Source: Candidatus Sumerlaeota bacterium (GTDB taxonomy: Bacteria > Sumerlaeota > Sumerlaeia > JAFGJS01). From it: a stretch of 11,957 bases of DNA. Of this stretch, positions 1 to 11,957 are shown in pieces (positions within the stretch are counted from its first letter, which is position 1; every line of letters starts with the position of its first letter). A model generated the notes under the pieces. The model saw only the letters and a program-made list of their open reading frames with translations. It ran no database searches and was not told the DNA's origin. Location of the stretch: assembly GCA_016928995.1 (NCBI GenBank), contig JAFGJS010000001.1, positions 1-11,957 of the forward strand, in the 5' to 3' direction. Made by a program: the position numbers and the translations under genes.

Positions 1-573
1 CTCCTTTTCGTTCCTCTGAATTTTCGAACGAAAACCGGAGAAAAATCCACCTTAATGGCTGTCCAGTTTTTGGGGACAATTATAATATCCTATGCTAAAA
101 GCCTGGGCTTCCTCGATGAGAAAGGTGTTCCCACACAATTATATAAGCAGTTCCGCAATCCCTCTCAATCAGCAGTAGCCCTAGCAAAAGGAATCATGTC
201 TGCATACAAACCTCTCTATGAGAGGAATGAGTACTTTTACAATCTTACAAAAACGAAGATACATGAACTTGTATGCGAAGAGACAGGTCAAGACCATGAC
301 AACATAACCGCAAAGCGGATCACAAATACATTAGTCGAAGTGAAAAAACTTGCCAAGTTTGATACATTGGATGAAGAGGTTGAGCCTGAAGATGAGATAA
401 GTGAGGAGGAAACCAATGACCAAGCGGTCTCAGACGAAAGCAATTCTACCCCAATCCAACATCACGTTGGTAAGCTTGGCCTAGCTTATAACATTAACTT
501 AATTTTACCGAACACTGACGATCCGAAAGTGTTCAATGCAATATTTAAAAGCCTAAAGGAGAACCTGCTTTGA
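1..573 (+). CDS. DUF5343-family protein, 5' end outside the window
   Basis: The reading frame is open from base 1 to the TGA at 571-573, so the gene probably starts left of the window. The first internal ATG is at 55, with only a distant GGAG at 37-40. From memory of the family, DUF5343 proteins have about 40-50 residues before the part that aligns here, which also argues that the ATG at 55 is not the true start. The matching features are an LGFLDEKGVPTQLY stretch, an FRNPSQS motif, a PLYERNEY motif, an acidic low-complexity linker (about residues 100-125 counted from the ATG at 55), and a terminal block with LGLAYNINLILP and VFNAIFKSLKENLL. The biochemical function of the family is unknown to me. 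The gene overlaps the downstream HEPN gene, so the two are probably translationally coupled. Base composition is clearly more AT-rich than everything right of the tRNA, suggesting horizontal origin. Confidence 0.75.
   Translation, partial: LLFVPLNFRTKTGEKSTLMAVQFLGTIIISYAKSLGFLDEKGVPTQLYKQFRNPSQSAVALAKGIMSAYKPLYERNEYFYNLTKTKIHELVCEETGQDHDNITAKRITNTLVEVKKLAKFDTLDEEVEPEDEISEEETNDQAVSDESNSTPIQHHVGKLGLAYNINLILPNTDDPKVFNAIFKSLKENLL
555..561 (+). promoter_or_regulatory. Ribosome binding site that fixes the TTG start of the HEPN gene
   Basis: AAAGGAG lies inside the last codons of the DUF5343 gene, 8 bp before the TTG at 570 and 20 bp before the ATG at 582. This spacing selects the TTG start and implies translational coupling of the pair. 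Confidence 0.6.
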
Positions 574-1151
574 GCAAAGACATGGATTCCAAATTAAGAT
601 CATTCTTCTTTAGTTGCATGGGAACTGGTGCTGATCTCGATCGATATGAGGAACGAACGGGTGTGAATATCGTTCAAAGAGAGGATGTCAAGGAGGCAAA
701 ATTAGCCGACAACTTTGAAGCAAAGATATACAATGATGCAAAACAGATGTCTGAGCACTACATTACTTTTTATTGCCTCGAAAGATCAGCCCGAAATATT
801 GTCGTTGGAAAACTCAAGGCAACACATGGCGGTAACTGGTGGACCACTAAGGTTCCTTCAAATATTCAATCGAATGTCGCGCATAACATGCAGCGAGAGC
901 TTGATGCTGGGGTTGCACCGCGTTCGGAAGATGAAATTGATTACACTAATTTTGGTGAGCTGGGTGAGATTGTAAAAGCAAACTGGGCCGATTTTGGAGA
1001 CATGTTTAAAAGTGTAAAAGCATTCACTAAGATCATGGCTAATCTAAATGTTTTGCGGGGACCAATTGCACATTGCAGTATATTATCAGAGGATGAAATC
1101 CTAAGATTGCAGTTAACTGTAAAAGACTGGATCAGGTTACTATCCAAGTGA
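570..1151 (+). CDS. Swt1-like HEPN domain protein (putative RNase/toxin-type fold)
   Basis: This 193-residue protein has the hallmarks of a Swt1-type HEPN domain. An all-helical segment begins around residue 63 (YITFYCLERSARNIV), followed by an NWW motif near 89-91 and a KVP motif near 94-96. A conserved C-terminal block holds L-N-V-L-R-G-P-I-A-H, giving R163-x4-H168, the RX4-6H signature of HEPN ribonucleases. It ends in a KDWIRLL helix. HEPN proteins act as metal-independent RNases or as structural partners in toxin-antitoxin and antiviral systems; the RNase activity here is inferred. The TTG start at 570 is preferred because AAAGGAG at 555-561 sits 8 bp upstream; the ATG at 582 is too far from it. 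TTGA overlaps the stop of the DUF5343 gene by 4 bp. The residue after the catalytic-type Arg is Gly rather than the more usual polar residue, so activity is not certain. Confidence 0.75.
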   Translation: MSKDMDSKLRSFFFSCMGTGADLDRYEERTGVNIVQREDVKEAKLADNFEAKIYNDAKQMSEHYITFYCLERSARNIVVGKLKATHGGNWWTTKVPSNIQSNVAHNMQRELDAGVAPRSEDEIDYTNFGELGEIVKANWADFGDMFKSVKAFTKIMANLNVLRGPIAHCSILSEDEILRLQLTVKDWIRLLSK

Positions 1152-1155
1152 ACAA

Positions 1156-1196
1156 GCGGATGAAATCGGACGGCCTAAAGGCCGCCGCTTATCCGC
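1156..1196 (+). terminator. Hairpin after the HEPN gene, possible transcription end
   Basis: A nested inverted repeat starts 4 bp after the HEPN stop codon. The inner stem is CGGCC-taaa-GGCCG (1171-1184) and the outer arms are GCGGAT (1156-1161) and ATCCGC (1191-1196). No T tract follows immediately; the nearest T run is at 1221-1227. It is therefore a weak intrinsic terminator candidate at best, or simply structure at the junction between the AT-rich module and the tRNA gene. Confidence 0.35.
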
Positions 1197-1229: not shown

Positions 1230-1316
1230 TGGTGCCGGAGGAGGGAGTCGAACCCTCACACCCGTTATGGATAATGGATTTTGAGTCCATCGCGTCTGCC
1301 ATTCCGCCACTCCGGC
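1230..1316 (-). tRNA. tRNA-Leu(CAA), CCA encoded
   Basis: Read on the minus strand, the acceptor stem is GCCGGAG pairing with CTCCGGC, followed by discriminator A (1233) and an encoded CCA (1232-1230). The D arm begins TGGCGGAATGG. The anticodon stem-loop is ATGGA-CTCAAAA-TCCAT, which gives anticodon CAA (reads UUG). There is a long variable arm, as in class II tRNAs, and a T arm GAGGG-TTCGACT-CCCTC. The total of 87 nt fits tRNA-Leu. The 3' end faces the AT-rich DUF5343/HEPN genes, so this is a plausible integration target. A consensus-like promoter lies about 60 bp upstream. Confidence 0.96.
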
Positions 1317-5065: not shown

Positions 5066-6166
5066 TTAGATCACGCCGCCTTCTCGTTTCATGCGTAGGT
5101 GTTGCTCCTTTTTTGCTGCCTGCTTGGAGACGTTTATAATAAGCGTATTATTTTCGATCTTCTTGGTCATGCTGTCCGGGTTGATGTCATCGGGCAATGT
5201 GGCCATATGATTGAATGATTGCTGACTTTCATTGCGGCTGACGACATTGCCCTGAGCGTCCTTGATCTCGTTGATGTTTTTCTTTTCACCGCTCACCATC
5301 AACATGTTGCCCTGGAGTTTGACGTTGACATTTTGCGGTTGTCCGCCGGTCTGAATGCGAATCTCGTAATGATCGCCTTTGTCTTCGAGATTCATGCTGC
5401 TCATCGGCATCCCGTTGCCCTGCGAGCCGAAGAAACTGTGCATATGGGGCTGCTGAGTGTTGCCCAAAGACGGCGGAAGCGTCTGGCCGATACCCCATCC
5501 GGCCGGCGGCTGCATGCCGTTCGGCGACATGGGCATGGCGCCGAAATCCTGCAGCATTTCTCTCCGCATTTGCTCGAAAAACCGGTCAAATTCGTCCGGA
5601 GCATGCAGCGGCGCCCAACCGCCGCCCATATGCGGATTTTGCATCGCGCTCTCGATCATGGATCGAAGCTGCGCCGCCTCGTTATCAGGCGCGTTAAACT
5701 CAATAATCAGTCCGTTGCTCGTATCCTGATTGCCAGCCGCTGTAGTGCTTGTGAAAACCGGCTGACCGTTGACCATGAGCATCGGCGGCGGCAATGGCGC
5801 GCGAGTCTGAGTTTGCATCTGCTCCAAGGCCTTCCGCACTTCCGTGTCCATCACATGCAGCATCGCGGCAGTCGGCGTGGAGTGCGGATCCTCGATGTGC
5901 GATTCCCGGATGACGTGAGCGACTCCCGTCTCTGGATCGTATAGAATCTGAGCGTTGGCCGTGTTGCCTTCGAGCGGAATGACATGCTCATTGCCGTCCT
6001 TGTCAACATAACGAATCGCGCCAGACAGGTCGATCTCACGGCTGGCTTTCGGCGCTTGGCTTTGCTGATCGTCCTTCGCCGGCAGATGAATCTTGGCGGC
6101 ATGCAATGCAGTCGTGCCCGTAGCGAACGCCGCAAATGTCGCAATGAGCCAAACTCGGATTTTCAT
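5066..6166 (-). CDS. Exported alpha-crystallin/Hsp20-like protein
   Basis: The 366-residue product begins with a Sec-type signal peptide (MKIRVWLIATFAAFATG, probable cleavage after ALHA at residue 23), so it should act in the periplasm or outside the cell. Residues 24-180 are unlike any family I know and include a proline-rich patch at 124-129 and a second beta-rich stretch. Residues 191-210 (DEFDRFFEQMRREM) resemble the helix before the alpha-crystallin domain of many small heat-shock proteins. A Met/Pro/Gly/Gln-rich linker follows. An Hsp20-like domain occupies about 259-347, with YEIRIQTGG, MLMVSGEKK, LPDDINPDSM and a terminal TLIINV strand. The usual G-V-L of the last conserved motif is replaced by N-T-L. 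Small heat-shock proteins are normally cytosolic and about 150 residues, so the export and length are unusual. A holdase role in the envelope is inference. It has its own sigma-54 type promoter and terminator. Confidence 0.85.
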   Translation of the reverse strand: MKIRVWLIATFAAFATGTTALHAAKIHLPAKDDQQSQAPKASREIDLSGAIRYVDKDGNEHVIPLEGNTANAQILYDPETGVAHVIRESHIEDPHSTPTAAMLHVMDTEVRKALEQMQTQTRAPLPPPMLMVNGQPVFTSTTAAGNQDTSNGLIIEFNAPDNEAAQLRSMIESAMQNPHMGGGWAPLHAPDEFDRFFEQMRREMLQDFGAMPMSPNGMQPPAGWGIGQTLPPSLGNTQQPHMHSFFGSQGNGMPMSSMNLEDKGDHYEIRIQTGGQPQNVNVKLQGNMLMVSGEKKNINEIKDAQGNVVSRNESQQSFNHMATLPDDINPDSMTKKIENNTLIINVSKQAAKKEQHLRMKREGGVI

Positions 6167-6939: not shown

Positions 6940-9489
6940 ATGCCTCGAACAAAGGGAAAGCCAGGCGAGGGGACGAAAACGGACGAGAAAAACGACGCGA
7001 AGGCGAACGCCAAAACAAGCGCCAAAAACGGCGCAAGGGCGAACGCGAAGACGAACGCGAGTAAAAGCGCAAAGCCTGACGCAAAAGCGCAAAACGCTCC
7101 ACAGAACGAAGAATTGCCGCGCGAGGTTGAAGCTTTGGCCGAAGCGCTCGTATTGCTGGAACCGTCCGATGTCAGCGCGATGGCTGAAGCCCATACGTCA
7201 TTGCAGAAAATCGTCGAGTCGCTTAAACAGGAAAAACAGGAACGCTTTGCGGAAGCGACCCATGCCGCCGCACAACTCGTGGAGAAAATCATTCTGGCGG
7301 ACACCGACGAGCCAGACGCGGCGATGGCGACTTTATTGCGCTTCGTGGCGGCTTTGCAGGCGGCCATATGCAATGGGCGCGAAGAGGCGGAATGCGATTT
7401 CCCCGTGGAACTGATGCCCGGAGGAGCCGTGGAACAACCAGCGCCTGAGCCTGAGCCTGAACCGGAGGCGCCGAAGGCGAAAAGCGGCCTGGAGGATTCC
7501 ACGACGCAGCTGCCGCCCGCCGCTCCGCAAGCGGCGCCGGTGAAAAAGGTTGAAGCCGCAGACGCACGACAGGCGCAGACCGAGACGACAGGGCCAAGCG
7601 ACGCGCAAACCGCATTGGAAGCGGATCGCGAGTTGCTCAGTGAGTTCCTGAGCGGCGAAGCGCAGGAGCATCTGGAAGCTGCGGACATGGGTTTGCTGGA
7701 ACTGGAGACAGATCCGAGCTTGGAAGAAGCGCTGAACGCAGTTTTCCGGGCGTTTCATACCATCAAAGGCGTCGCGGGATTTCTGGGTTTGACGCAGATC
7801 GGTTCGCTGGCGCACGAGGCGGAGAATCTGCTCGATTCGGCGCGCAAGGGAGAACTGGTCCTGAAGGGAGCGGCGATCGACGCGACATTCGACGCGGTGG
7901 ACGGCTTGAAAAAGTTGATCACCGAAGTCAGCGAGGCGCTGGCTACCGGAGTGGCGGCGCCAGCCAACGCGGCGTTCGGGCTGTTGATCGAGCGAATCCA
8001 GGCGGCCGGTTCCGGCGAGGCGCTGGAAGAAGACCAGGGCGAACCGGAAGGGGTTCCCGGCCGGCGGCTGGGAGAAATTCTGGTCGAATCGGGAAGCGCG
8101 ACAAATGAGCAAGTGGAGTCGGCCTTGCAGCGTCAGCGCGAATCCGACGAGCATCCGAAGCTGGGTTCGGTGTTGGCGCGCGATGAAAAAGTTCCCGCAA
8201 GAGACGTGGCGCATGCGCTGCGCAGCCAGCAGCAAGCCTCGGCGGTGAAGGAAAACGTGAAGGTGGACGCGGAGCGCCTCGACCGGCTGCTCGATACAAT
8301 CGGAGAATTGGTCATCGTGGAGGCGATGGTGACGCAGTCGCCGGAGATGAAAGGGATCGCCTCGGCGGAACTCGCGCGGCACCTGAGCCAGTTGAATAAA
8401 ATCACGCGGGAACTGCAGGAGATGGGGATCCCGCTGCGTATGATTCCGCTACGCTCGACGTTTCAAAAGATGGCGCGGATGGTGCGCGACCTTTCAAAAA
8501 AAGCCGGCAAACGCGTCGAGTTCTGCATGTCCGGCGAGGACACGGAACTGGACAAGTCGGTCGTGGATAAAATCGGCGATCCGCTGGTGCATATGATCCG
8601 CAACGCTGTGGATCACGGGCTGGAGTCCGATCCGGCGGAACGCCGGGCGGCAGGCAAATCGGAGACGGGGCGCGTGGAGCTCCGCGCGTACCATAAGGGC
8701 GGCGGGATCTACATCGAGATCGAAGATGACGGGCGCGGTTTGAACAAGGATGCGATCCTGGCCAAGGCGCGCGACCGCAAGTTGATCAATGACGGTGACA
8801 GTCTGAGCGAACGGGAAATTTTCAATCTGATCTTCGAGCCGGGATTCTCCACGGCGAAAAAAATCACGGAAGTCTCGGGCCGCGGCGTGGGGATGGACGT
8901 CGTGCGGCGGAACATCGAAGCCCTGCGCGGGCAAGTGGATATTCAATCCAAGCCGGGAAAAGGCAGCGTCTTCAGCATCCGCCTTCCGCTGACGTTGGCG
9001 ATCATCGACGGCATGGTCGTGCGCGCCGGACAGGAACGATATATCATCCCGACACTTTCCGTGGTCCGCTCGATCCGGCCCGAAAAGCAACACAGAACTC
9101 AAATTCTCTCGAAGGGCGAACTGCTATCGGTGCAAGGAGAGCTGATCCCGCTGTTCCGGTTGGGCGAGTTATTCGGCATCGCCGAAGCGGAGAGCGAACT
9201 GACGAACGCGATCGCGATCATCGTCGAGGAAGAAAACCGGCGCGTGGCGATCTTAGCGGACGAACTGCTCGGACAGCAGCAAATCGTGATCAAAAGCCTC
9301 GGCGAGGCGATGAAAGGTATTCCGGGAATCGCCGGAGGAGCGATCATGCCCGACGGAAAGGTCGGACTGATCGTCGATGTCAGCGGCCTGACGCGCTTCG
9401 CCCTGACGGAAAACAAGGAAGACGAAATCGACACAAAAACATATACAGACCAAGAAGCGCCGGCGGAGCTGAGCGCCGGCAAAGCATAG
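6940..9489 (+). CDS. cheA: Chemotaxis histidine kinase CheA with MshEN-like insert
   Basis: This 849-residue kinase would phosphorylate itself from ATP under receptor control and pass phosphate to CheY/CheB-type regulators; none is in the window. Domains in order: a Lys/Ala/Asn-rich tail (about 5-55); an all-helical unrecognised segment (about 57-155); a Pro/Glu linker; the HPt domain (about 230-340) with phospho-accepting H273 in FHTIKG; a tandem 24-residue MshEN-like motif (376-399 and 407-430); P3 dimerisation (about 435-500); the HATPase P4 with N box N555-AVDHG, G1 DDGRG (596-600), FEPGFS (632-637) and G2 GRGVGMD (647-653); and a CheW-like P5 (about 690-835). All key kinase residues are present. 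The ATG at 6940 has AAGGA 8 bp upstream. It is longer than typical CheA (about 650-700) because of the N-terminal extension and the insert. cheW follows after 13 bp. Confidence 0.96.
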   Translation: MPRTKGKPGEGTKTDEKNDAKANAKTSAKNGARANAKTNASKSAKPDAKAQNAPQNEELPREVEALAEALVLLEPSDVSAMAEAHTSLQKIVESLKQEKQERFAEATHAAAQLVEKIILADTDEPDAAMATLLRFVAALQAAICNGREEAECDFPVELMPGGAVEQPAPEPEPEPEAPKAKSGLEDSTTQLPPAAPQAAPVKKVEAADARQAQTETTGPSDAQTALEADRELLSEFLSGEAQEHLEAADMGLLELETDPSLEEALNAVFRAFHTIKGVAGFLGLTQIGSLAHEAENLLDSARKGELVLKGAAIDATFDAVDGLKKLITEVSEALATGVAAPANAAFGLLIERIQAAGSGEALEEDQGEPEGVPGRRLGEILVESGSATNEQVESALQRQRESDEHPKLGSVLARDEKVPARDVAHALRSQQQASAVKENVKVDAERLDRLLDTIGELVIVEAMVTQSPEMKGIASAELARHLSQLNKITRELQEMGIPLRMIPLRSTFQKMARMVRDLSKKAGKRVEFCMSGEDTELDKSVVDKIGDPLVHMIRNAVDHGLESDPAERRAAGKSETGRVELRAYHKGGGIYIEIEDDGRGLNKDAILAKARDRKLINDGDSLSEREIFNLIFEPGFSTAKKITEVSGRGVGMDVVRRNIEALRGQVDIQSKPGKGSVFSIRLPLTLAIIDGMVVRAGQERYIIPTLSVVRSIRPEKQHRTQILSKGELLSVQGELIPLFRLGELFGIAEAESELTNAIAIIVEEENRRVAILADELLGQQQIVIKSLGEAMKGIPGIAGGAIMPDGKVGLIVDVSGLTRFALTENKEDEIDTKTYTDQEAPAELSAGKA

Positions 9490-9502
9490 GAGGAACACTG
9501 CG

Positions 9503-10006
9503 ATGGCGGAAGAAACAATCATGGCCGCGACGGCCAAGGCGGGCAAGTACCTGACTTTCACTCTGGCCGAGGAGGAATACGGCCTGGAGATCCTCAAGGT
9601 CCAGGAGATCATTGGAATGATGAACGTCACGCGCGTGCCCAAGACGCCCGAGTTCGTGCGCGGCGTGATTAATCTGCGCGGCAAGGTCATCCCGGTCGTC
9701 GACTTGCGGCTGAAGTTCGGTCTTGCCGAACAGGACGAAACGGAAAAGACCTGCATCATCGTGGTGCAGGTGGCTCAGGGCGACCACCGCACGATCATGG
9801 GGATCATCGTGGACCAGGTCTCCGAAGTGATGGATATCGGCGGAGATCAGATCGAACCGGTGCCATCCTTCGGCTCGAGCGTGGACACCACGTTCATCCT
9901 GGGAATGGGCAAGATCGGCTCGAAAGTGCTGACCATGCTCGACATCGACAAAGTGCTGTCCGCCGGCGAAACCGCCGCCATGCGCGACGCCGCCCAAACC
10001 GCGTAA
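9503..10006 (+). CDS. cheW: Chemotaxis coupling protein CheW
   Basis: The 167-residue product is a single CheW domain: YLTFTLAEEEYGLEILKVQEI, then RVPKTPEFVRGVINLRGKVIPVVDL, the GIIVDQVSEVMDI strand pair and the terminal VLTMLDIDKVL. It has the normal CheW length. It bridges receptors and the P5 domain of CheA at the inner face of the membrane. The start at 9503 is preceded by AGGAGG (9488-9493) overlapping the cheA stop, with a 9 bp spacing, so cheA and cheW are almost certainly one operon. A second in-frame ATG lies a few codons downstream but has no comparable ribosome site. The receptor gene follows after about 200 bp. Confidence 0.96.
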   Translation: MAEETIMAATAKAGKYLTFTLAEEEYGLEILKVQEIIGMMNVTRVPKTPEFVRGVINLRGKVIPVVDLRLKFGLAEQDETEKTCIIVVQVAQGDHRTIMGIIVDQVSEVMDIGGDQIEPVPSFGSSVDTTFILGMGKIGSKVLTMLDIDKVLSAGETAAMRDAAQTA

Positions 10007-10147
10007 AGAGAAGACTCAATAGTCTATCATGATGACGACGACTTCAACGACTTTTATCAAGGCGACGGAAGTGTGTTCTGCTGGCATCAAGCGCTAATAC
10101 AGCAACGCATATTTAAATAAACAGTCGAGGCGAATTTTTTTACCAAT

Positions 10148-10177
10148 TTGTCGAGCGGTGCTCACAGGAACGATAAT
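10148..10177 (+). promoter_or_regulatory. Candidate promoter for the chemoreceptor gene
   Basis: TTGTCG (10148-10153, 4 of 6 to the -35) and GATAAT (10172-10177, 5 of 6 to the -10) are separated by 18 bp, about 33 bp before the receptor start. The surrounding cheW-mcp gap (10007-10209) is AT-rich and has no other clear feature and no strong terminator. The receptor may thus have its own promoter as well as read-through from cheA-cheW. Confidence 0.4.
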
Positions 10178-10209
10178 TAGTAAAAAAAAAGAGGGGAAGA
10201 GAAGATAAA

Positions 10210-11957
10210 ATGTTAAAAAACATGTCCGCAGGAAAAAAAATCGGACTCGGTTTCGGCGCCTTGATGGCCTTGCTGACCGTCGTAGCCGTGATTGGATACA
10301 CAAGCATGAGTAACATGCTCAACAACACACATCATACCATTAAGATGAACGAATTGGATAAGCTGCTGGTCGAGAAGGAAGTCGATCATCTGAATTGGGC
10401 CAATGCTGTGTCTGAATTGCTGACAAATGAGAACGTCACCGAGCTGAAGGTGCAGACCGATGATCATCAATGCGCGTTCGGCAAATGGCTCTACGGCGAA
10501 GAACGCGTGCAGACAGAGCAGGCGATGCCCGAATTGGCCTCCATCCTCAAGGAAATCGAACCTGTGCATGAGCGCTTGCACGCATCGGCGATCCATATCG
10601 GGGAAAGCTTCCACCAGGCCGATCCAGAGTTGCCGGGGGTACTGGCGGCGCGGCAGATCGATCATTTAAACTGGGCCAACGCCGTGCGCGATGCATTCCT
10701 CAACAAATCCAACACGCTCGAAGTCCAGACCGACGCCACAAAATGCGCACTGGGCCAATGGCTCGAAAGCGAACAGGCGAAAAAGGCCTATGCCAATGGC
10801 GACGCCGAATTTAAACGAGCCTGGGACGAGATGCTCACGGTGCACCGGCAGCTGCACGCCTCCGTGATCGACGTCAAAAAAAATCTGGCCTTCGACCAGG
10901 TGGAACAAGCCCGCCAGACCAGACAGCGTACGCTGAACGAACTCGACAAAATTTCCCAAAGCCTCTTTCAAGAACTGGATCAGGCGATGGAAACCTTCGT
11001 CGATCCGGCCAAGGCAAAAGCAGAGAAAGCCAAGGACATCGAGTCGATGACGAAATGGAGCGCGATCGACATGGCCTTGAATGAGGACATCATCGAGCCG
11101 CTTCTTTCGCTGCGTATTTTACTGAACAATACGTATGAGAGCAAGCAGAAGAGCGCCTATAAAGAAGCCTATAACGAAATTCTAGCCAGCGTCGATGAAT
11201 GGGCTAAACTGCTTCAAAACGACTCCGCCATGGAAAAAGTCGCAGACAGCATTCGCAAGCATCTGGAAGACTGGAACGCACAGGTCATAGTATACTTCGG
11301 CGCCGCGGACGAAGAGGAGAAATATCTCGCAACGCTGGATACGGCTAGAAAAACTTTCCAGGATACGATGCTGCCCGCTTTGGAGCAAACGCTGGCGCAT
11401 CTGCATACCTTGACCGAAACAGCGCAGAATAATCTGAATGGCATGGCTGAGGCCAACCGGGTCTTCAATGAAGTCACAAAGCCATCCCTCACCCAAACAC
11501 AGGAACTGCTCACAAAGGCGATCGACCTGGTTACTGCTAACGTTGAAAAAGAAAATGAAGGCATCTTCATCACCGGCAAGCGCTCGAAGGCTCTGGTCGG
11601 CGTCATTTCATTTGCGGCGCTCTTGATCGGCATAATACTGGCTTACTTTATCGCTCGCAGCATCACCCGCGCACTGAAGCAGATCATCGAAGGCTTGCGG
11701 CTCGGGGCGGATCAGGTCACTTCGGCTTCGGGGCAGGTGGCGCAGTCGAGCCAGTCGATGGCCGAGGGCGCCAGCGAACAGGCTTCCAGCTTGGAGGAAA
11801 TCTCCTCCTCGCTCGAGGAAATGGCCTCCATGACCCGGCAGAACGCCGACAACTCACGGCAGGTGAACAAGATGGCCACCGAAGCCCGAACCTCCACCGA
11901 CCAGGGCCGCGAGGCCATGGCCCGCATGTCCGAGGCGATCGGCAAGATCAAGGCCTC
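10210..11957 (+). CDS. Methyl-accepting chemotaxis protein with tandem CZB domains, 3' end outside the window
   Basis: The frame is open from the ATG at 10210 to the right edge (582 codons). TM1 is at about residues 9-31. Two consecutive CZB (chemoreceptor zinc-binding) domains follow. The first has ligand set H60 (HLNWANAV), C88 (CAFGKW), H120 and H124 (HERLH). The second has H152, C179 (CALGQW), H212 and H216 (HRQLH). A further helical stretch of about 240 residues leads to TM2 (about 461-482). A short HAMP-like segment and the start of the MCP signalling domain come next (SMAEGASEQASSLEEISSSLEEM). CZB domains bind zinc through three His and one Cys and are known to sense zinc or hypochlorous acid; the ligand here is inferred. 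Between TM1 and TM2 the CZB domains would face the periplasm, whereas many known CZB domains are cytoplasmic and C-terminal. The signalling tip and any methylation pentapeptide are not in view. The position after cheA-cheW suggests it feeds that kinase. Confidence 0.93.
   Translation, partial: MLKNMSAGKKIGLGFGALMALLTVVAVIGYTSMSNMLNNTHHTIKMNELDKLLVEKEVDHLNWANAVSELLTNENVTELKVQTDDHQCAFGKWLYGEERVQTEQAMPELASILKEIEPVHERLHASAIHIGESFHQADPELPGVLAARQIDHLNWANAVRDAFLNKSNTLEVQTDATKCALGQWLESEQAKKAYANGDAEFKRAWDEMLTVHRQLHASVIDVKKNLAFDQVEQARQTRQRTLNELDKISQSLFQELDQAMETFVDPAKAKAEKAKDIESMTKWSAIDMALNEDIIEPLLSLRILLNNTYESKQKSAYKEAYNEILASVDEWAKLLQNDSAMEKVADSIRKHLEDWNAQVIVYFGAADEEEKYLATLDTARKTFQDTMLPALEQTLAHLHTLTETAQNNLNGMAEANRVFNEVTKPSLTQTQELLTKAIDLVTANVEKENEGIFITGKRSKALVGVISFAALLIGIILAYFIARSITRALKQIIEGLRLGADQVTSASGQVAQSSQSMAEGASEQASSLEEISSSLEEMASMTRQNADNSRQVNKMATEARTSTDQGREAMARMSEAIGKIKA

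What the first reader, a model, noticed from the sequence alone, without database searches (positions are those of the whole stretch)
1..1151. DUF5343 plus Swt1-like HEPN pair as a candidate defence or toxin-antitoxin module
Seen: two AT-rich genes with a 4 bp overlap, an internal ribosome site, an RX4H motif (R163, H168) in the second product, and an acidic linker in the first. Known: HEPN proteins with this motif are RNases in many toxin-antitoxin and phage-defence systems. Inference: the DUF5343 protein is the partner (antitoxin or sensor) of the HEPN effector. I am not aware of a characterised system of this composition.
Basis: partly seen in the sequence, partly recalled or inferred. Interest (0 to 1): 0.7.

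Follow-up and report, generated by a model that had tools for sequence, protein, structure and literature searches.

The report
IS-broken copy of defence candidate PDC-M34
The two genes are a real, almost inseparable pair found in many bacterial phyla, in prophages and beside anti-phage genes, and already listed as the untested defence candidate PDC-M34; in this genome the first gene of the pair has been cut in two by a transposable element.

Summary
The pair is real. ORF1 is DUF5343/PDC-M34A; ORF2 is an intact Swt1-like HEPN protein/PDC-M34B. The 4-bp overlap, internal ribosome site, acidic linker and R163-x4-H168 are all there. The composition is not new: PADLOC-DB already lists it as two-gene candidate PDC-M34, with no experimental paper found. 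Pairing is close to absolute: 87 of 88 testable loci keep DUF5343 directly upstream; the two proteins' distance matrices agree (r = 0.91, best shuffle 0.22); a DUF5343-based viral scan returned only HEPN-carrying contigs. Some copies sit in prophages, one between an OLD-like ATPase and DRT5. The 5' part of the DUF5343 gene is on contig C106, abutting the other IS end, and about 26 codons lie in neither contig. This copy is probably dead. Best reading: an abortive-infection-type HEPN ribonuclease regulated by DUF5343. Intact HEPN genes beside broken DUF5343 genes argue, weakly, against DUF5343 being a plain antitoxin. Ordinary member of a known candidate family; the mechanism is open.

The parts
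1..84 (.). End of an insertion sequence (multi-copy element), not part of the DUF5343 gene; carries the interrupted palindrome TGTCCAGTTTTTGGGGACA at 60-78
   Evidence: 100% identical over 82-87 bases at 14 other contig ends of the same genome, each joined to different DNA; no protein or DNA similarity to relatives' DUF5343 genes before base 88
85..573 (+). 3' part of the DUF5343 (PDC-M34A) gene; 5' part on contig C106 (L151, about 150-84, minus strand)
   Evidence: PF17278 6.5e-27, PDC-M34A 1.2e-37; 5' part located at C106:79-150
361..450 (+). Acidic, probably disordered linker of the DUF5343 protein
   Evidence: Sequence; the equivalent stretch has pLDDT under 50 in the relative L014
475..573 (+). 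Conserved C-terminal tail of the DUF5343 protein (YNINLILPNTDDPKVFNAIFKSLKENLL)
   Evidence: P170, I181 and F182 invariant, Y163, V177 and A180 at 98% in 62 sequences; outside the Pfam DUF5343 model
558..561 (+). GGAG ribosome-binding site for ORF2, inside ORF1
   Evidence: Sequence; 8 nt before the start at 570
570..1151 (+). Intact Swt1-like HEPN gene (PDC-M34B), 193 aa, 4-bp overlap with ORF1
   Evidence: PF18731 2.3e-11, PDC-M34B 1.1e-39; AlphaFold2 pLDDT 93 all-helical; VIA Z 9.2 to AbiF 8vz6
780..794 (+). Codons of E71 and R75, invariant; proposed second half of the active site
   Evidence: Invariant in 63 sequences and not part of the search pattern
1056..1073 (+). R163-x4-H168 HEPN motif
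   Evidence: Sequence; present in pattern-independent sets
1156..1196 (.). Nested inverted repeats after ORF2 (GCGGAT...ATCCGC and CGGCCTAAAGGCCG), possible terminator
   Evidence: Sequence only
1230..1316 (-). tRNA-Leu (CAA); its 3' end faces the islet
   Evidence: ARAGORN, Rfam RF00005

Best explanation
The pair is a copy of the two-gene anti-phage candidate PDC-M34, acquired horizontally as a roughly 1.5-kb AT-rich islet next to a tRNA-Leu gene. The HEPN protein is a metal-independent ribonuclease effector: R163/H168, probably with E71/R75, at a dimer interface as in other HEPN nucleases. The DUF5343 protein is its dedicated regulator. A helical N-terminal domain senses an infection cue, and a flexible acidic linker ends in a conserved beta-alpha tail that probably docks on HEPN or on a second DUF5343. 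On infection HEPN cuts RNA and stops the cell or the phage. In this genome the system is most likely off, because an insertion sequence splits the DUF5343 gene. Shown: the genes, near-absolute pairing, conserved motifs, predicted fold, prophage copies and the IS. Inferred: RNase activity, sensing role, docking, anti-phage effect and loss of function.
For: PADLOC PDC-M34A 1.2e-37 and PDC-M34B 1.1e-39. Upstream DUF5343 in 87 of 88 testable loci. Converse: 5 of 7 over-cut-off DUF5343 genes in 386 genomes are paired, all five matches under 1e-40 in 395 genomes of the Thermoflavifilum phylum, and 8 of 8 viral contigs. Distance matrices r = 0.91 against at most 0.22 in 2000 shuffles. Patchy spread over at least 12 phyla, needing 16 label changes; nearest relatives of the window are a Chromatiaceae and a Desulfobacteraceae at 64-68% identity, while no clear homologue was found in 39 genomes of its own phylum. 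Two prophage copies lie between integrase and CI-like repressor plus primase; one copy lies between an OLD/GajA-like ATPase and DRT5 (1.2e-202). The HEPN model's best named match is AbiF Z 9.2, then Csm6' Z 8.0, HepT about 6 and AbiA 5.1. IS in the gene.
Against: No activity has ever been shown. Immediate neighbours are mostly housekeeping genes, and gene-level defence enrichment over genes more than 7 kb away is unclear. The Z-scores are in the range that helical bundles can reach by chance, and Foldseek itself gave no significant match. The tethered DUF5343-HEPN model has pTM 0.47, so no interface is supported. Some DUF5343 proteins exist without HEPN: next to valS, or fused to a TPR-like region. 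Another PADLOC candidate pair, PDC-M63AB, showed no defence when tested (PMC12409345).
Confidence: 0.6

Rival explanations
1. Type II toxin-antitoxin module: HEPN is constitutively toxic and DUF5343 neutralises it by binding; phage defence is at most a by-product.
For: Short, overlapping, co-directional genes with the partner first; HEPN toxins of the HepT/MntA type exist and appear in the fold list; acidic linker in the partner; mobile distribution.
Against: Eight loci with intact HEPN and broken or partial DUF5343, including the isolate Knoellia subterranea (L082) where only the tail codons remain, plus the window itself. Caveats: polar effects, frameshift errors in MAGs, and HEPN-based retrieval. 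No ParD/HTH autoregulator signature was found.
Confidence: 0.22
2. AbiF-like system: the HEPN nuclease is controlled by an associated non-coding RNA, and DUF5343 is an accessory.
For: The best fold match is AbiF bound to ncRNA, and AbiD/F co-occur with RF03085 (PMC12165695).
Against: No Rfam family other than tRNA in the window or C106; 400 bases upstream are not conserved even among the closest relatives.
Confidence: 0.05
3. Non-defence RNA regulation or stress response, with DUF5343 as a general adaptor domain.
For: DUF5343 occurs unpaired beside valS and fused to a TPR-like region in one genus; many paired loci sit among housekeeping genes.
Against: Patchy, transferred distribution, prophage early-region copies, neighbouring DRT5 and OLD-like genes.
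Confidence: 0.1
4. The break in the DUF5343 gene is an assembly artefact (chimeric contig end).
For: The junction lies at a contig end of a draft MAG, and about 26 codons are missing between the halves.
Against: 15 left ends and 14 right ends of the same element each join different unique DNA; the two gene parts abut opposite element ends and there is one gene copy.
Confidence: 0.05

Closest known systems
PDC-M34 (PADLOC-DB 2.0 candidate, PDC-M34A + PDC-M34B)
   Same: Both proteins hit the two component models and lie in the same order and strand.
   Different: In this genome component A is interrupted by an insertion sequence, so it is probably a non-functional member.
AbiF/AbiD (Abi2) HEPN nucleases
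   Same: Closest solved fold (8vz6, Z 9.2, 135 residues); Anantharaman et al. 2013 put Abi2 and Swt1-like HEPN in one clade (PMC3710099).
   Different: Protein partner DUF5343 in place of a conserved ncRNA; no RF03085.
HepT/MntA (HEPN-MNT) toxin-antitoxin, e.g. SO_3166/SO_3165
   Same: Two-gene HEPN module; HepT is in the fold list at Z about 6.
   Different: The partner is DUF5343, not a nucleotidyltransferase; HEPN genes persist beside broken partners.
BrxA (DUF1819) of BREX
   Same: Weak fold match of the DUF5343 domain to 3bhw (Z 5.2, rmsd 4.3, 138 residues), a BrxA; BrxA binds dsDNA (PMC9240713).
   Different: No profile-profile similarity (probability 0.2); no other BREX genes nearby.

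Membership tests
PDC-M34 | Component A matches a PDC-M34A model | tested here: met
   1.2e-37 over profile 48-207 of 208
PDC-M34 | Component B matches a PDC-M34B model | tested here: met
   1.1e-39 over 1-189 of 192
PDC-M34 | A and B adjacent on one strand | tested here: met
   4-bp overlap
PDC-M34 | Component A complete in this genome | tested here: not met
   Interrupted by an IS; 5' part on C106. It is filed as a broken copy of the family.
HEPN_Swt1 (PF18731) | Score above Pfam cut-off | tested here: met
   44.5 bits against 27.5
HEPN_Swt1 (PF18731) | R-x4-6-H motif | tested here: met
   R163/H168; kept in DUF5343-ascertained pairs. In the 80 loci it is kept by construction.
HEPN_Swt1 (PF18731) | HEPN fold with motif residues apposed | tested here: inconclusive
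   All-helical model with pLDDT 93; HEPN proteins among the top VIA rows; coordinates not available, so apposition was not measured
HEPN_Swt1 (PF18731) | RNase activity | not testable with these tools
   Needs biochemistry
Type II toxin-antitoxin | Toxin not kept without antitoxin | tested here: inconclusive
   8 loci with intact HEPN and broken DUF5343, plus the window; polarity and sequencing errors possible
Type II toxin-antitoxin | Toxicity alone, neutralised by the partner | not testable with these tools
   Needs expression tests
BrxA (DUF1819/PF08849) | Sequence-profile similarity | tested here: not met
   hhalign probability 0.2
AbiF with ncRNA RF03085 | Associated RF03085 RNA | tested here: not met
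   Only tRNA found at gathering threshold

The most novel reading that the evidence does not exclude
DUF5343 is a nucleic-acid-sensing adaptor of BrxA-like shape that directly switches an HEPN ribonuclease through its conserved C-terminal tail, giving a minimal two-protein 'sense phage nucleic acid, cut RNA' immune system of a mechanism not yet described.
Probability: 0.15. Interest if true: 0.65.

Novelty: new member of a known kind. Interest (0 to 1): 0.35.

Why it matters
PDC-M34 is one of many catalogued but untested defence candidates. The near-absolute pairing, the conserved tail, the prophage copies and the natural DUF5343-broken/HEPN-intact loci make the sensor-versus-antitoxin question directly testable. 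The window copy warns that an open reading frame at a contig edge can be an element fragment, and that this genome's system is probably inactive.

Tried and rejected
Plasmid and phage records: only distant Swt1 HEPN proteins without DUF5343 turned up in plasmids, and nothing in phage records. Single-sequence viral scans found nothing. The first mixed alignment for the tethered model misplaced DUF5343 tails; it was redone with fewer rows. The tethered model, made by reading the stop codons between the two genes of relative L014 as residues, gave pTM 0.47 and no usable interface. L035 looked like a natural fusion, but its DUF5343 N-terminus is frameshifted, so it was not used. Near-versus-far defence-gene enrichment: 84 models matched in 132 near genes against 23 in 101 far genes, but one gene matches many models (18 for one gene), so this is not gene-level evidence. 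Conserved upstream ncRNA: none. The tail matches no Pfam family. Foldseek for the HEPN model: no significant match.

Full report
What is there. The window is the whole of contig C55 of a 4.55-Mb draft genome. ORF2 (570-1151) is an intact 193-aa Swt1-like HEPN protein (PF18731 2.3e-11; PDC-M34B 1.1e-39). ORF1 matches DUF5343 (6.5e-27) and PDC-M34A (1.2e-37). The genes overlap by 4 bp; L032 and L033, the closest relatives at 67% and 64%, start ORF2 at the same place with GTG and ATG. GC is 0.41 in the islet and about 0.60 beyond it, with a tRNA-Leu gene at 1316-1230 whose 3' end faces the islet. This is the only copy in the genome.

Residues 1-28 of ORF1 resemble no relative in any frame, and homology begins at about base 88. 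Bases 1-84 occur, 100% identical, at 14 further contig ends of the same genome, each time followed by different DNA. The 5' part of the DUF5343 gene, with its own ribosome site, lies on contig C106 at about 150-84 on the minus strand. The rest of that contig end is the other end of the element, itself present at 14 contig ends. The two ends share TTGTCCCC and TTAAGGTGG. So an insertion sequence sits in the DUF5343 gene. About 26 conserved codons are in neither contig, so there was an adjacent deletion or a second insertion. C106 beyond the gene holds a carbohydrate esterase-like hydrolase, an alpha-galactosidase and a GH43 protein, and its GC returns to 0.58. The islet is thus only about 1.5 kb and carries no integrase of its own.

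Pairing. A scan of one genome per species with an HEPN alignment gave 80 loci. Adding other loci, and leaving out those cut by a contig edge, 87 of 88 keep DUF5343 directly upstream on the same strand; the exception is an HEPN relic. The commonest spacing is a 4-bp overlap (27 loci). Searches starting from DUF5343 agree: 5 of 7 genes over cut-off in 386 genomes, all five matches under 1e-40 among 395 genomes of one phylum, and 8 of 8 viral contigs (the same contigs). Distances between DUF5343 proteins and between HEPN proteins correlate at r = 0.91 (56 pairs), so the pair travels as a unit. The HEPN tree spans at least 12 phyla and needs 16 label changes; the window's nearest rows are a Chromatiaceae and a Desulfobacteraceae, and the window's own phylum otherwise lacks a clear homologue.

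Anatomy. In 63 HEPN sequences M60, E71, R75, W90, G129, L131, F142, L159, R163, I166, H168 and R179 are invariant. R163 and H168 were part of the search pattern, so their constancy there is by construction, but E71, R75 and R179 were not. In DUF5343-ascertained pairs the R-x4-H motif is also present (L112-L115, L172-L176, L178, L179). The AlphaFold2 model has pLDDT 93 and is all helical. VIA-align ranks AbiF first (Z 9.2), then Csm6' (8.0) and later HepT and AbiA, all HEPN proteins. Foldseek alone found nothing significant, and such Z values can occur by chance in helical bundles. The DUF5343 protein has a well-predicted helical domain, a disordered acidic linker and a tail, Y-x-I-x-(6)-P-...-V-x-x-A-I-F, that is its most conserved part and lies outside the Pfam model. 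Its best fold match is a BrxA structure, 3bhw (Z 5.2), a family whose member binds dsDNA (PMC9240713), but profile comparison shows no link. This is a lead, not a membership.

Context. L173 and L174 lie in prophage-like contigs between an integrase and a CI-like repressor followed by a primase-helicase (families searched in L173, same layout in L174). In L172 the pair lies between an OLD/GajA-like ATPase and a DRT5 reverse transcriptase. L090 has a type IIG restriction enzyme next to it. Most other immediate neighbours are housekeeping genes, so a general defence-island enrichment is not shown. PADLOC's PDCs were found by 'guilt by embedding' and most are untested (PMC12988326).

How it most likely works. 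The best reading is a two-component HEPN ribonuclease system in which DUF5343 controls HEPN and triggers it on infection. RNase chemistry, sensing and docking are inferences. The antitoxin reading is less favoured because intact HEPN genes persist beside broken DUF5343 genes in eight loci (L035, L047, L055, L082, L096, L097, L099, L112) and in the window. Polarity, draft-genome frameshifts and HEPN-based retrieval limit this argument. In this genome the system is probably inactive.

Novelty. The composition is already catalogued as PDC-M34; no paper in the library mentions DUF5343, HEPN_Swt1 or PDC-M34. It is a damaged new member of a known candidate family.

Noticed in passing
window 1-84; L135-L148, L152-L165: A multi-copy insertion sequence (about 14-15 copies) breaks contigs all over this genome; its ends share TTGTCCCC and TTAAGGTGG. 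Its transposase was not located.
   Followed up: partly
L116-L123, L125: DUF5343 also occurs as the N-terminal domain of 376-595-aa proteins with an acidic middle and a TPR-like C-terminal part, in eight genomes of one family (most of them one genus); no HEPN partner nearby.
   Followed up: partly
L029:1318-1917 and L030:1255-1917: Stand-alone DUF5343 proteins with the same kind of C-terminal tail sit next to a valyl-tRNA-synthetase-like gene in two genomes of one genus, without HEPN.
   Followed up: no
L082:8321-8971 (Knoellia subterranea): Intact HEPN gene whose DUF5343 gene is gone except for its last codons (VFNAIFKSLKEHLL).
   Followed up: partly
L024:1477-1989: A second, shorter PDC-M34B-like protein (4e-25) in a genome that also has a full pair, with no DUF5343 upstream.
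   Followed up: no
L035:1885-3090: In-frame DUF5343-HEPN fusion in an Acidobacteria MAG; its N-terminus looks frameshifted.
   Followed up: partly
window 1156-1196: Nested inverted repeats between the HEPN stop and the tRNA-Leu gene; possible terminator.
   Followed up: no
window 5066-6166: HSP20-like protein with a very long N-terminal extension (about 260 residues before the alpha-crystallin domain).
   Followed up: no
window 6940-11955: CheA, CheW and a chemoreceptor with two CZB zinc-binding domains in a row.
   Followed up: no
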